From assembly GCF_051622035.1 (NCBI RefSeq), contig NC_135355.1, positions 37,305,986 to 37,369,985 of the forward strand: DNA of 64,000 nucleotides. Reading direction: 5' to 3'. This document shows positions 3,702 through 62,200 of the stretch, one piece after another (the first letter of the stretch is position 1; every line of letters starts with the position of its first letter). This DNA comes from Arctopsyche grandis (lineage: Eukaryota > Arthropoda > Insecta > Trichoptera > Hydropsychidae). Made by a program: the position numbers and the translations under genes. The notes below the pieces were generated by a model. The model had not been told where the DNA came from. It did not search any database and worked only from the letters and a program-made list of their open reading frames with translations.

Positions 3702-3846
3702 ATAATTATTTATTTATTTATTTATTTATTTTAAACAGACCATTGTGGCATAACAGGAATTCCTAAAGCGCCACAATGGTCAAAAAATATAACACAAAAA
3801 AGAAAAAAAACAAAATAACAATTAAACATAAACATAAATACATCCA
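3702..3846 (-). mobile_element. LINE 3' tail with class-3 hairpin
   Basis: This short insertion lies inside the SINE, judged by comparison with 21075-21110. Its minus strand has a 12-bp perfect stem (3738-3749 with 3770-3781, GACCATTGTGGC) around a 20-nt loop, then an (AAATA)n-type tail. The same hairpin class ends the LINE remnant at 60860-61640. Confidence 0.6.
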
Positions 3847-4139
3847 TAATGACCATAGATGTCAGATATTTAGATTTACATGTATCTATGTAATAATTAT
3901 GTGGACCAGGAAGGCGCATTTGGGGTTTACCTGTTAAGCCTTCCTGGTATATTTGTATATATGTATGTGAAAAATAAAATAAATTAGCCTTACCGGACAT
4001 TCCCGATTGTAAAACAATCTTTAGTAATGTATAGGTAAATACATACGTACATATGGTGATTGGAGCTGTAATTCCACTTGCTGGCTGGTTTTTTTTTTTT
4101 ATTATGTCTGTGAATATCAAGCTATTGAATGTTTTGAAA

Positions 4140-56266: not shown

Positions 56267-59200
56267 TCAAAACAATCTCGCCACCGTTTGCCGCATGTAA
56301 TCTTTGAGCGGCCTGTAATAGTGGTAGTGAAGAGAGACCATCTCGGGCCACTGCCGGAACTTCTTCAGCAGCGGCCAGTCGGACTCCAAAACTAGCACCG
56401 TCAGAAATAACAGAGAGAAACAAACGAAGAGAAACGACGGCACGAACGCTTTGAATATGTTGAACTTCTTCGGCTGGCCGCTGTTCGCCGCCGCGTCGTT
56501 CTGCGACGCTTGAAACGTGGTGAGAGCTCGTTTACTCGGCGTGTGGTTGTTGCTGGAGTGTCTGGAAGACTCCTCGGGGCCCCTGTTGGCCGCCTCCATG
56601 CCGAAGTTCGTCAGCTGCGACTCGGACGACGAGTGCTCGAACGAGTCCCGGAAGTAGTAATCGTTGAAGTGGTGCGTCCCCTCTCCGGAAGTGCCTGAAA
56701 AAGACGTGGAAATGAACCGAGGGGACACTCGCAGCGTGCGACAGATAAGTGCAGAGGTCCGGTCAGACAACGACGGCTACCTTGGTGGAACATTTTAGAA
56801 CGTTGCTCCTCAGTAACGGGTGACAATATATGATCTGGACAAAAAGAATTTCCCTCACCGGCATTATTGGATCCTATGGCCGTGCTCATCATAGCACACC
56901 CGTTGCACGTGTCTAACGATTCACCCAACGGTGCCGAGTGAGTAGAACGTGGCAAACTGCTGTAAGCACCACCTGCAACGACCCGCACAAAGCGCACAAA
57001 TTAGTTTCGGCAATTGCGACGCCGCGAACTCATAAGTTTTCCTAGGATCAATTACTAAAATCACTATTCATTGGAGTCGAAGGTGTCGCCGGCACGCTCG
57101 ATGCTTTGCGCCTGGGTCCGCCTCCCTCGCCGTTGGCCGTGCCGTTGCCCCGAGACTCGCTCGATCCTTGCAGTATCTCTCTTTCTGTGCGGCCGACGTA
57201 GCGAAATTTACTGCCCCATGAAAAAAATCCACCTCCCGATATCACAGATGCGTCGGCGCTTGAAGCCAAGCTGTAAATAATACATTTTTATTTTAATACA
57301 CAACGCTTTTTTTTTAAAAGTCAATATTATCCTACTAGTATAGTGTAGGAAGCGGAGGGTATCAAGGTGGGCGGCGAGACAATCACCAATATAAGATATG
57401 CTAGTCACTGAAAATTTAGCAGACCTGCAAAGATCTCTAGACCGTGTACATCAAGAAAGCAATCGAAGAGGTCTGCGCATAAATCTAAAGAAGACAAAAT
57501 TTATGATAGCAGATAGAATGCAAACAGACACCGGTGATCTAACATTGGATGGAGAGGTCTTAGAAAGCGTCAAAAGATTCAAATACCTGGGTACCTGGCT
57601 AAATGAAGAATGGACCCAGATGAAGATCTAGGAAGATCCCCATCGAGATGGCGAGAGGTGCATTTATTAAAATAAAGGTGGCGCTTACAAACAAGCAACT
57701 CAATCTTCGTACGCGTTTGAGATTCGCGAAGAGCTACGTCAGGACAGTGTTACTACATGGATGTGAAACGTGGACTCTGAAGACCAGGATGATCAGCCGC
57801 ATCGAAGCTTTTGAGATGTGGGCGTACAGGCGTATGCTGAATATCCCGTGGACCAAAAAAGTATCAAATAAAGCTGTCCTCGTCATAATAGAGAGAGGCA
57901 GGGAACTTGTTTCTGTTATCAAGCGGAGAAAGGTGGAGTACCTCGGACACATGATACGGTGTCCAAAATACGAATTTCTCCGTTTGATAACCATCGGGAA
58001 AATAGAAGGTAAAAAATTGATTTGCGGGAAAAAATTGTCTTGGCTTCGAAACATGCGCATGTGGACCGATATGAGCTCCGAAGAGCTGTTGGTTGGGCTT
58101 TTGCCCAACCACCGTTCGATCCTGTGGGTTGACCTCGATTGAAAAGAATTTATTCCGAGTATATCTGTATAGCTGCTGGTCAGACTTGGATATTTGTGAC
58201 TCCAGGTCGATCACTTCCTATCAGAGTTAGGCAATTTTTCTCATTTCATTGTTGAAACGGTTCCTCGATTAAATTGGCTAAAAACCTTCCTACCTAATAT
58301 GTCAACACTATTTGAGTATGATTAATGTACAAGTTAAAATTCATAGATGTCTCGTTAATTTCGAATTTCCAATGTCTAGTAATTCAGCGACTTGCTACAT
58401 TGTTTGTAATTGGCCAGGAAGGCGAATTGGGGTTTACCTGTTGGGCCTTCCTGGTATGTATATATATGTACATACATATATGTATATAATTATTTGACTT
58501 AAAAATTCTGTATTTTGTCGCATCCATTTAAAATTTTCATTAAAAATTGAAATTTGTAATGACGATTTTGGCGCCCCCAGATTTTGAAGCCTGCGACCGT
58601 TGCTCCCTTCGCACCACTCTTTGTATACGATTAAGTAATTGTAGGTCACACATTACGCAGAGACTCCAAAATCGCACTTTTCCTTGAACCCTTGCAGTTC
58701 TTTCACCTTTCATTCTCACATTTACTTGTTTTTCCTTAGTAGTCTTTAGATAAACAGAATACCGGGACAACTGACTCATGGACTGGGACACAGGGACACA
58801 GATCTATAAACCGGGACATGTTCCGGTCCACCAGGACGTATGGCAGCCCTATACTAGTGTTCTGCCCGTTGATTTCAACGGGTGACTTCGGAAACGAGTT
58901 GATACACGAATTAAAATAAAGTTATATGTATGTTATATATATAAATATAGTGTAAGGTAATGTATAAGCGCATCGCGTCCGTTTTTATATATATTATATT
59001 ATACTAACGTAAAAAATAGCATTTGCTCAATTGCACATCGCCACACGTGTCGACACGCTGCTCCGCTAGGGCATTTGAAACCAACTGTATGCTTCTTCTG
59101 AAAATAAAAAAAAAACACTTTTCTTAACACATCACGATGATTTTAAAATCAATATTTTACTGAGTAGTGAAATAGACGAACATTAACGGAATAAATATAG

Positions 59201-62200
59201 GACATAATGAAACCACACTAATAAGAAATTCAATTTTCAATACAACTATTGGAGTGAATATATTCGAATTTAGAATTTAAATAGTTTTGCTAGTATAATA
59301 AAGAGACGTGTGAAATTAGAATGGAGTGCATTTGGACGAATGAATGCGTTTTTTAAATCAAAAATGCTACTTTGCTTGACGAAAAATATCTTCGATCAAT
59401 GTGTTTTGCCAGTGATGACGTATGGATGTGAAACTTGGACATTGAACGCCAAGTTGCTGCACAAAGTCCAATGCACTCAAAGAAGTATGGAACGTTGTAT
59501 GCTTGGCATAATGAGGAAAAACAGGGAACGGAATACTTGGGTGAGAAATATGACAAGGGTAGTGGATATAGTGGATAGAGTGAAGAAATTGAAATGGCAA
59601 TGGGCAGGCCACGTGGCCAGAAGAATGGACGAAACGTGGACAAAAAAGTGCTAGAATGGTACCCGAGAGAATGCAAAAGGGTAAAAGGAAGACCGCAGGG
59701 AAGATGGATGGACGAAATTAGGAAAATGTGTGGGGTGAGATCGATGAGAGTTGCGCAAAACAGGGACGAATGGAAGCGTATTGGAGAGACCTTCATCCAG
59801 CAGTGGATGAATGGCTGATAATGATGATGATGATGATGATATCAAGTATAGGCCTGTATTTAAAGAGTCATTGATTATTCGGGACACTGATTTTTACGAA
59901 AATTAATTACACTGAGCAACAAAAATAGAAGACTAATCAACCGTTACTAAGTTTGATTAGTCTTCTATTTTTAAACGTTACTCGTTTATGATATGAGCGT
60001 TTAAAATACTACTTTACAGATTTTTACAGATTTTATCTTAAAATCTAGTATTGCTGTGCCAAAAAAGTGAGTGTTGGAATTAATGTCAGATGTTTTTTCT
60101 ATTGATTGTGATTTTTAATTGTCTTAAAATACTAGTAATTAATTATCCAACAGTTCAATGATGTGTCTTTTAAGATAGTCGAAAAGCGAGAAAACGGAAA
60201 TCAAATTGCTGTGTGATTTGAACATTCCTGTAAAAAGAATACGTGAAATATTGTTAGTAAAGGGCTTTAAGCTACAAAATAAGCAAATATCTAATTATTC
60301 GACAGTATTAAAAATATGAGGCTTGTAAAAAAAACATGTATAGAAATAACATAGATAACGGAATCGGAGAATTTAGCATACATACGTCGTCTCACATAAT
60401 GTGAAATATTGTTTTTTTACTAACCGTTTTAATGTTTTTTATGGACCATTTAATGTTTTTTTACTAACCGTTTAATGTTTTTACGCACTGTTTAATGTTT
60501 TTTTACTAACCGTTTAATGTTTTTACTAACCACTATTATGAATACTTACTGATTTTTTTATTCATGCTACAAAATAAGCAAATATCTAATTATTTGATAG
60601 TATTAAAAAAAAAAGTGTATGGAAATTTGTATAATAGAAAATGATCAGTAGATCAGTAGCTCTTGAAATAGATATAAGACGCATTGTGAACATAATTTGG
60701 TAATAATAAAAAGCATTTAAAAAATCACAATCAGGAAATAACACAATTAGTATTCGTCAAGTAGTACAGTGGTGTTTGAATCATACCGAGATACTGGAAT
60801 CGGAGAATTTAGCAAATGTGGTCTCTCACAATATGAAATATTGTTATTTATTTATTTAACGTTTTTTTGACCATTATGGCATTACAGGAAGAACCTAATG
60901 CGCCATAATTCTCTGTGGTATTGATTTTTTAAAATAAAATAAAATAAAATAAAATAATGGCCTACATAATAAAATAATAAAATAAAATAAGAGGGAGAAA
61001 ACAAAAAATAAATAGATACAACAAAAAGCAAAAGCTAAAAAAATTAAGATACAAAAAAATTTAAAAAAAAAAATAATACAGCTTATAACACAATCATAAA
61101 AAACTTTATAGTAATTAAAATTTAAAATAAGAAAAAATACAAATAAGGAAATGTCTTGCACCTGCAGCATTTTCTGATAAGAGCACGCTACAAATACAAA
61201 ACATCCCTGCCAGGCCCAAATGGAAGAGAGTAGATTAAGATTCCAATCATACATCACATTAAAACTAAGAAAGTAATGATGAGCGCAGGTTACCAGATAA
61301 ATATGTTAAAATAATATCCGATAATCTACGCTCACCGAGGTGGAAAATATCGCATTCAGGGACGGCAGCAACGAACTTCATTGAGAAGTCGAATAACTCA
61401 TGGTATAGGAGCCATAAGAAAAAGGACTGTGCGAGCAGGAGGTACAACCATCAAATGATGATATCTACCACGCACATAATTATTAGGTAGATAAAGTCCC
61501 AACTGTTCCAGCAACAACGGGCATGACGTATTACCACACAGTAGCTGGAGAACGAAACTAATTAACGAGAAGTTTCTCCAAAGTTCAAGGGAATTATACC
61601 CAAGCATGCCCAAAAGGATAGGAGTAGGATAGAGATATGGGTTTATAGATACCCATTTACTAACTGTTTAATGTTTTTTACGGACCGTTTTGTTTTTTAC
61701 TGACCGATTAATGTTTTTACTGACTGTTTAATGTTATTACTGACCACGTTTACGAATACTTACTGAATTTTATTTATTTACTGACCCTTTTTATATATAG
61801 TTGCTAACCAAAAAGTTTGTTCACTTAAAAAAAATAGCCCGAGTTGAATGGCCAAAACGTAGAAAGATGTATGATTATAAAAACAATCGAATAATAAATA
61901 AATAAATAACAAAATAATACAGAAAATCTTATACATGAAAAGCATGGCAGATATAATTGAGAGATTCGAAAAGTTCGTAGTAATGAGTGCGATATGTTGC
62001 TAGATGAGTAAAAGGTAAAAAGTACCATAATAATATTTACGATGAAAAAGCAAATCTAAAGGCCTGAAAAGAACGTCACAAAACTGTTAATAAGAAAATG
62101 AAAAATATTTATCAAATATAACATAATCACCTCCGGATAATTAAGATGAACAATAAACATTTTCCCTTCGTAATTTATTTTATGTACTTCAGACCACCTA

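What the first reader, a model, noticed from the sequence alone, without database searches (positions are those of the whole stretch)
3738..60910. Four classes of terminal hairpin share one loop but have unrelated, self-complementary stems
Class 1 (3905-3948), class 2 (5553-5592), class 3 (3738-3781, minus strand) and class 4 (11129-11172) each form a 10-12 bp stem around a loop of about 20 nt. The stems begin ACCAGGAAGGC, TACACTCGTC, GACCATTGTGGC and GACTGGTGTTAC and do not resemble each other. The loops all fit GC-W-TT-R-G...CCTGT-W-A or close variants, e.g. GCATTGGAGCGATCTGTAAT and GCTTTAGGAATTCCTGTTAT. Class 4 keeps pairing through three G-T wobbles. At least 15 copies in this window sit at LINE or SINE 3' ends before an A/T-rich tail. 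This pattern implies selection on RNA structure, with the loop read by the reverse transcriptase and the stem free to diverge into families.
Basis: partly seen in the sequence, partly recalled or inferred. Interest (0 to 1): 0.82.

Follow-up and report, generated by a model that had tools for sequence, protein, structure and literature searches.

The report
Shared-core hairpins ending LINEs and SINEs
At least five related families of self-copying DNA elements in this animal genome end in an RNA hairpin whose upper part is nearly the same in all of them while most of its stem differs from family to family, and shorter parasitic elements carry two of these hairpins, probably so that the copying enzyme accepts them.

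Summary
The "20-nt loop" is not open: it holds a 4-bp upper helix (usually U.G, G.U, G-C, then G-C or A-U) with a 4-5-nt cap, above an internal loop 5'-GCWU/3'-UHAN. The stems are not wholly unrelated: their innermost 3 bp are mostly GNC/GNC.

The window's own genome (476 Mb) could be searched. In 20 unselected 10-kb stretches, 16 hairpins scored E<1e-3 and three further stem classes appeared. Over 43 distinct copies 92.9% of pair cells are paired, falling to at most 53% when partners are slid.

Each of five stem classes ends its own LINE lineage of one endonuclease/reverse-transcriptase clade (C-terminal identity 35-51%). All 12 class-5 and all 8 class-3 copies whose 3' flanks I fetched, chosen for open ORFs, end in their hairpin plus an A/T-repeat tail. 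tRNA-headed SINEs share one body but end in class 1 or class 2.

Best explanation: a stringent-type LINE 3' recognition hairpin, hijacked by SINEs. The concept is known (UnaL2, ZfL2, plant L1); new here are this architecture and the number of co-resident lineages. Protein recognition was not tested.

The parts
3905..3948 (+). class 1 hairpin (1a); its SINE copy is split by the class 3 insertion 3a
5050..5091 (+). class 1 hairpin (1b) at a SINE 3' end; weak fold
12641..12683 (-). class 1 hairpin (1c); very short insert, flanked by 9-bp ATATTCGTA at 12604-12612 and 12691-12699
   Evidence: uninserted repeat copy at about 39.1 kb; repeats read by eye
17407..17871 (-). SINE with tRNA-like head, body, class 1 hairpin 17447-17488 (1d) and tail; 21-bp target-site duplication, 1 mismatch, at 17386-17406 and 17872-17892
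21149..21192 (+). class 1 hairpin (1e), SINE
31651..31692 (-). class 1 hairpin (1f); 5'-truncated class-1 LINE copy inserted in another repeat
54441..54481 (-). class 1 hairpin (1g), SINE; upper helix fully Watson-Crick (CGGG/CCCG)
58414..58455 (+). class 1 hairpin (1h), 5'-truncated SINE next to an unrelated LINE fragment
4630..4658 (-). class 2 hairpin, 5' arm missing (2a): insertion truncated inside the hairpin
5553..5592 (+). class 2 hairpin (2b), SINE
17920..17955 (-). class 2 hairpin, decayed (2c), SINE; sequence score at the random level and E 0.28 with the model, placed by its SINE context
18744..18780 (+). class 2 hairpin (2d), SINE; weak fold, no clear repeat tail
34246..34578 (+). 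C-terminal ORF piece of the class-2 LINE
34895..34931 (+). class 2 hairpin ending that LINE (2e); 178-bp inverted-repeat insert 34579-34756 lies between
3738..3781 (-). class 3 hairpin (3a), short insertion into the 1a SINE (1e is the uninserted copy)
60833..61655 (-). 5'-truncated class-3 LINE insertion (ends approximate): C-terminal ORF piece 61374-61646 with one stop, 3'UTR, hairpin 60869-60913 (3b), A/T tail
10732..11080 (+). C-terminal ORF pieces (frameshifted) of the class-4 LINE
11129..11172 (+). class 4 hairpin ending that LINE (4a)
35054..35095 (-). class 4 hairpin (4b), decayed upper helix

Best explanation
These are the 3' recognition hairpins of one clade of endonuclease/reverse-transcriptase LINEs. 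In each family the RNA ends 5'-[lineage-specific stem, inner 3 bp mostly GNC/GNC]-internal loop GCWU/UHAN-4-bp upper helix with U.G/G.U pairs-4-5-nt cap, followed by a short A/T-repeat tail. The LINE's ORF2 protein is inferred to recognise the core and to require a stem for its pairing rather than its letters, then to start target-primed reverse transcription in the tail. At least five LINE lineages (classes 1-5) carry the same core on different stems. tRNA-headed SINEs with one common body have acquired class 1 or class 2 hairpins and so probably use those enzymes. Shown: sequence, pairing, covariation, 3'-terminal position, the LINE-to-class map, SINE tail exchange. Inferred: protein recognition, tolerance of stem change, SINE mobilisation.
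For: Structure: class-balanced alignment of nine hand-picked hairpins 95.6% of cells paired, covariation 0.804 against 0.282 shuffled and at most 0.284 slid; upper helix 36 of 36 cells paired. 43 distinct rows: 92.9% paired, upper helix 96.4%, covariation 0.578 against 0.215. Ends: 12 of 12 fetched class-5 LINE copies (of 48 listed) and 8 of 8 fetched class-3 copies (of 150 listed) end in their hairpin. For class 4, all 40 scored places, the window included, match from the ORF C-terminus through the hairpin. For class 1, all 40 scored places cover the hairpin and 12 of them (L063 included) also show the ORF end upstream on the same strand. For class 2, three places besides the window show the same 42-base step from LINE protein hit to 3'UTR-plus-hairpin hit. 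LINE protein: RVT_1 2.4e-26, Exo_endo_phos 7.4e-7; all 48 class-5 copies scored (of 16,136 first-look candidates) are open over 960 aa. Insertion units: filled/empty comparisons for 3a, 1f, 1c and 3b; a 21-bp duplication around SINE 1d. Specificity: the model finds nothing at E<1 in the 324-600 bases after three other LINE types in the window (one hit at E 3.6 at 59923-59970).
Against: No binding or retrotransposition data exist here. Changes on both sides are mostly between classes, so few independent events (about 6-7 class differences) underlie the many cells; the number of pairs with such a change (10) is reached by 81 of 500 shuffles and the number of further pair types by 92 of 500. Within classes compensations are few and broken pairs occur, as expected for dead copies. 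Alignment A4 was fitted to the structure. Class 4's second copy breaks the upper helix, and the class 4 hairpin at L045:2548-2592 is decayed (E 0.14; folds otherwise). One of the 16 unselected hits, L045:8331-8380, is rearranged and folds otherwise. Three of 11 C-terminus-like matches had no hairpin within 600 nt (window 5757-5945, L010:603-815, L004:2750-2809); the L004 one proved to be another repeat. A loose motif (3 substitutions) does match nine stretches after the three other LINE types; I judged none to be the core by reading, and the model agrees.
Confidence: 0.88

Rival explanations
1. The hairpin is a transcript-end signal (processing, stability or export of LINE/SINE RNA) rather than the reverse transcriptase's recognition site.
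For: It lies just before the A/T tail in the LINE copies fetched and in most window copies, where an RNA-processing signal would also sit.
Against: SINEs with tRNA-like heads, presumably made by a different polymerase, carry it too. Known stringent LINEs use such hairpins for enzyme recognition (passages of PMC4176376). Insertions truncated inside or just before the hairpin (2a, 1c) show that it and the tail are the last parts kept.
Confidence: 0.08
2. The classes are not homologous: unrelated elements converged on, or happen to share, a short motif in a hairpin.
For: Most of the lower stem differs between classes, and many chance hairpins exist in the window (194 merged on the + strand by loose criteria).
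Against: The same internal loop, upper helix and cap recur across classes, and classes 1-5 each end LINEs of one protein clade with 35-51% C-terminal identity. Chance of 8 of 8 LINE ends having a hairpin within 600 nt is 2.6e-12 (n limited to copies that have one, so this flatters).
Confidence: 0.03
3. The stems diverge by drift alone and the cores are interchangeable, so any of these LINEs can mobilise any other family's RNA and SINEs.
For: In zebrafish ZfL2 LINEs the stem could be swapped (about half activity for ZfL2-1) while the loop could not. The cores here are nearly the same.
Against: One stem class per LINE lineage holds in the copies examined, and SINEs were seen with classes 1 and 2 only in this window; neither excludes cross-mobilisation.
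Confidence: 0.5

Closest known systems
Stringent-type L2-clade LINEs ZfL2-1 and ZfL2-2 (zebrafish) and UnaL2 with its SINE (eel); PMC4176376, passages read
   Same: 3'-terminal stem-loop before a short repeat; loop decisive, stem needed but swappable (ZfL2-1 at about half activity); SINE shares the LINE tail.
   Different: L2 clade for ZfL2. Here a LINE clade not placed by phylogeny, with its own conserved core (GCWU...YCUGUHA) and at least five lineages sharing it in one genome. The same paper says UnaL2 lost activity when stem sequences were changed.
Plant L1 LINEs and ZmSINE2/3 (Ohshima, PMC3747384, passages read)
   Same: Conserved loop and flanking nucleotides with variable, compensating stem at LINE and SINE 3' ends.
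   Different: L1 clade, plants, about 50-nt region, conserved UCU loop and CGAG flank.
ZenoSINE/Zenon and Metulj/RTE pairs of heliconiine butterflies (PMC6685494, passages read)
   Same: Insect SINE/LINE partnership proposed from a shared 3' tail.
   Different: No hairpin named there (0 occurrences of 'hairpin' in the main text).
R2 and SART1 3'UTR recognition (mentioned in passages of PMC4176376; otherwise recalled)
   Same: 3'UTR needed for retrotransposition.
   Different: Site-specific elements with other 3' structures (recalled).

Membership tests
stringent-type LINE/SINE 3' tail | LINE with endonuclease and RT ends in a defined stem-loop plus short repeat | tested here: met
   Pfam domains; 12 of 12 and 8 of 8 fetched LINE copies end so
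stringent-type LINE/SINE 3' tail | a SINE shares the LINE's 3' tail | tested here: met
   SINE alignment with class 1 and 2 hairpins; the same classes end LINEs (for L063, 111, 128)
stringent-type LINE/SINE 3' tail | stem supported by compensatory change | tested here: met
   few events within classes
stringent-type LINE/SINE 3' tail | stem-loop needed for retrotransposition and bound by ORF2 | not testable with these tools
   needs cell and binding assays
L2-clade LINE (ZfL2) | ORF2 falls in the L2 clade by RT phylogeny | not tested
   only Pfam and solved-structure matches were run; clade names here are recalled
tRNA-derived SINE | A/B-box-like head, body, LINE-like tail | tested here: met
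   head and B box close to GGTTCGANTCC read by eye in the alignment; ARAGORN reports no tRNA gene in the window
tRNA-derived SINE | target-site duplication | tested here: inconclusive
   clear for 1d; the automatic search gave no convincing one for the other SINE copies
Rfam RNA family | match at gathering score | tested here: not met
   0 matches in the window

The most novel reading that the evidence does not exclude
The lineage-specific stems are identity tags. The common core commits the RNA to this enzyme class, while the stem lets each LINE prefer its own RNA, and stems diversify because lineages whose stem has been copied by SINEs (classes 1 and 2) are overrun. The five stems would then record an arms race between LINEs and SINEs within one genome.
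Probability: 0.15. Interest if true: 0.75.

Novelty: new member of a known kind. Interest (0 to 1): 0.5.

Why it matters
It is a natural stem-swap experiment. In one genome at least five related LINEs carry the same recognition core on different stems; the best-scored copies of the class 5, class 3 and class 1 families are near-identical or highly alike with long open frames, and SINEs use two of the stems. That makes an open question directly testable: what part of a 3' hairpin a LINE enzyme reads, and whether co-resident LINEs and SINEs are kept apart by it. The covariance model also marks LINE and SINE 3' ends, at about 8 per 100 kb in the unselected sample.

Tried and rejected
Open 20-nt loop: rejected, since RNAfold and pair counts put an upper helix there.

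Class 1 ends the LINE fragment at 57624-58142: rejected. The hairpin 58414-58455 there belongs to a 5'-truncated SINE whose B box abuts the fragment. A class-1 LINE was found at L037/L063.

LINE 5757-5945 and L004:2750-2809 as further hairpin LINEs: no hairpin; the part shared with L004 is another repeat. Window 41584-41793 is a LINE piece cut before its C-terminus.

Class 1 pattern in viral contigs and genome contigs: 0 matches; these hold viral and prokaryotic records and may leave out the window's own genome. A fuzzy-regex scan timed out and a motif scan missed copies; both were replaced.

L037:4700-4741 and L037:1198-1239 may be further classes or decayed ones; left open. Class 6 (L042) is a small, diverged family: 17 places including itself, most matches lying over the hairpin. 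Class 7 (L049) is a large family: 2076 first-look candidates, 39 of 40 scored places cover the whole hairpin. Searches show no LINE C-terminus upstream of either.

Literature searches for prior description (listings only, with passages of three papers read) returned the precedents cited and no report of this core that I saw; the library lacks most subscription journals.
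Full report
What was checked. The window is G000:C1:37305986-37369985 of an unnamed 475.7-Mb genome in 189 contigs. From its repeats and genes it is an animal and probably an insect (inference, not tested). A local-alignment scan gives 17 copies in the window: class 1 eight, class 2 five, class 3 two, class 4 two. Random sequence reaches 13, 17, 19 and 15 points for the four classes, while the copies score 17-44; the decayed class-2 copy at 17920-17955 scores 17, no better than random, and rests on its SINE context. 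A half-copy at 51646-51667 was left out.

What the hairpin is. Folding single copies and then counting pairs on alignments showed that the 'loop' is a second storey. Nine hand-picked hairpins of equal length from seven classes (A6) give 95.6% of 135 cells paired and all 36 upper-helix cells paired; the covariation score is 0.804 against 0.282 in shuffles and at most 0.284 when slid. On 15 window hairpins (A1) the figures are 91.9%, 0.608 and 0.220. On 54 model hits (A4, 43 distinct, fitted to the structure) they are 92.9%, 0.578 and 0.215; there the counts of pairs with a change on both sides and of further pair types do not stand out from shuffles (81 and 92 of 500 as high). The upper helix changes mostly by kept pairs: U.G to C-G or U-A; G.U to A-U or G-C; G-C to A-U in class 2. 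The lower stem is lineage-specific except near its inner end, where pair 9 is G-C in 37 of 43 rows and pair 11 is C-G or U-G in 41 of 43. Within classes there are a few compensations (class 2 pair 2 U-A/C-G; class 3 pair 7 G-C/G.U/A-U; class 1 pair 5 G-C/A-U) and also broken pairs, as expected of dead copies. The many both-sided cells therefore rest on few class-level events.

How common it is. A covariance model of the 15 window hairpins (R1), run on 20 unselected 10-kb stretches of the genome, gave 16 hits at E<1e-3 and 22 at E up to 0.05. That is about 8 per 100 kb, or of the order of 38,000 in the genome (my extrapolation; counting error about 22,000-62,000). Reading them showed classes 1-3 and new stems: class 5 (L044:5876-5917), class 6 (L042:5644-5685), class 7 (L049:5174-5215) and perhaps an eighth (L037:1198-1239; E 0.0013 with the second model). 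One of the 16, L045:8331-8380, is rearranged. Class 7 is a large dispersed family (2076 first-look candidates; 39 of 40 scored places cover the whole hairpin). Class 6 is small and diverged (17 places including itself).

Where it sits. In the window, LINE C-terminal ORF pieces with a shared motif (Y-L-x-P...G-M-[LV]-G-[YF]) lie upstream on the same strand of hairpins 2e, 3b and 4a, that is, of three different classes. In the unselected loci the same holds for L044 (class 5), L045 twice (classes 3 and 4, the latter hairpin decayed, E 0.14), L048 (class 3) and L037/L063 (class 1): eight copies with a hairpin within about 500 nt. Of the 11 C-terminus-like matches, the other three (window 5757-5945, L010:603-815, L004:2750-2809) had none within 600 nt; the L004 one turned out to be another repeat. 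With the observed hairpin density the expected number among eight is 0.29 (n was limited to copies that have one, so its p-value flatters).

LINE by LINE. The searches score only the best candidates, so these are top-ranked copies. Class 5: L044 holds an open 960-aa ORF2 with RVT_1 and endonuclease domains. The genome search scored 48 of 16,136 candidates and all 48 are open over 960 aa and print 100% identity. I fetched the 3' flanks of 12 of these 48, and 12 of 12 end in the class 5 hairpin, ATTGATTTTTT and an AAAAT/AAAT-type tail, followed by different flanking DNA. Class 3: 150 copies scored, with open frames of 989 aa recurring and up to 1027 aa; I fetched 8 of those with 989-aa frames and 8 of 8 end in the class 3 hairpin, CCAAAACTATT and an (AAAT)n tail. 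Class 4: a query running from the ORF C-terminus through the hairpin matches 40 scored places (window included), and all 40 start at query base 1-6 and run past the hairpin; a 41st match is a 71-base fragment. Class 1: the L063 query matches 40 scored places, all covering the hairpin; 11 of the 39 others also show the ORF-end piece upstream on the same strand. Its C-terminal search shows open frames up to 979 aa, and two of its places (C9:32227177 and C1:33972110) sit just upstream of hairpin places. Class 2: the 3'UTR-plus-hairpin query matches 40 scored places, 38 of them covering the hairpin; three places besides the window lie at a constant 42-base step from a class-2 LINE protein hit (C12, C9, C6). 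Apart from the window's own, the class 2 LINE hits listed are 78-90% identical to the query and look older. Pairwise C-terminal identity among the class 2-5 lineages is 35-48% over 61-92 residues, and 51% over 69 residues between class 1 and class 5.

Insertion units. The class 3 LINE 3b is bounded on both sides by a repeat whose uninserted copy lies nearby, so hairpin plus tail is its 3' end. 3a lies inside the 1a SINE, of which 1e is the uninserted copy, and 1f lies inside another repeat. 1c is an insert of some tens of bases that starts 7 nt upstream of the hairpin, with 9-bp flanking repeats (read). SINE 1d has a 21-bp duplication with one mismatch; the automatic search gave no convincing duplication for the other copies. 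2a begins inside the hairpin. These are the marks of target-primed reverse transcription that starts at the 3' tail and stops early (established mechanism; recalled).

SINEs. 1b, 1d, 1e, 1g and 1h (class 1) and 2b, 2c and 2d (class 2) share a tRNA-like head with a box close to GGTTCGANTCC (head truncated in 1h), a body near GATCGTTTCTTATCAGAATTTGCCAATTTTTCTGATTTTCATTGAAACGGTTCC, and often a small upstream hairpin like CCATAGATGTCTCTGTGG; they differ in the terminal hairpin. So one SINE chassis carries two LINE tails. The class-1 LINE 3'UTR aligns over about 150 bases with 1f but with the two SINEs tried (1d, 1e) convincingly only around the hairpin.

How it most likely works. By analogy with ZfL2-1/ZfL2-2, where the loop is specific, the stem is needed but swappable (ZfL2-1 at about half activity), and a region between endonuclease and RT binds the hairpin (PMC4176376, passages), the ORF2 protein of each lineage is inferred to recognise the core and a paired stem. 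Nothing here measures binding. Whether the different stems matter for telling lineages apart is open; the zebrafish swaps suggest a modest role, while the same paper reports that changed stem sequences cut UnaL2 activity sharply.

What is known and new. Conserved loop with variable, compensating stem at LINE and SINE 3' ends is in print for plant L1 (PMC3747384, passages), and stringent 3' tails for several clades. The finding is a new member of that kind. New, as far as the searches named in Tried and rejected show, are this core architecture, its presence in at least five co-resident LINE lineages with class-specific stems, and the tail exchange among these SINEs. LINE clade names (jockey/CR1-like) come from memory and were not tested.

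Noticed in passing
window 42641-45760 (-): Open 1040-aa LINE ORF of another type (RVT_1 1.3e-34, endonuclease); just after its stop lies a short hairpin CCTCA-GTGA-TGAGG with a GNRA cap, unlike the core studied here.
   Followed up: partly
window 34579-34756: 178-bp insert with near-perfect inverted ends GGGCYGGGCCGCACCG and TAA at both sides, inside the class-2 LINE; looks like a small DNA transposon.
   Followed up: partly
window 23694-24423: Tandem 146-bp repeat, about four to five units, that contains the SINE body in reverse orientation.
   Followed up: no
window 5455-5472 and the matching place in other SINE copies: Second small hairpin like CCATAGATGTCTCTGTGG in the SINEs; one pair reads T-G, C-G or T-A in different copies (by eye).
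   Followed up: no
window 61900-63530 (-): Exon-like pieces that look like a FERM-domain gene by eye, not searched; the class 3 LINE 3b would lie in or near an intron of it.
   Followed up: no
window 39572-40270 and 48861-49906 (+): Two related ORF sets (41.7% over 96 aa); the first resembles a NUDIX hydrolase just below Pfam's cutoff. Perhaps a tandem gene duplication.
   Followed up: no
window 59274-59830 (+): LINE 3' end that looks RTE-like (recalled), with a GAT-repeat tail and no model hit at E<1 after it.
   Followed up: partly
window 54441 region (-): A 22-bp repeat with one mismatch flanks 1g at -852 and +86, too far from the tail for a simple duplication; unexplained.
   Followed up: no
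L044:8937-9989 (-): Open frame of at least 351 aa upstream of and overlapping the class-5 ORF2 frame, with no Pfam match; probably ORF1.
   Followed up: no
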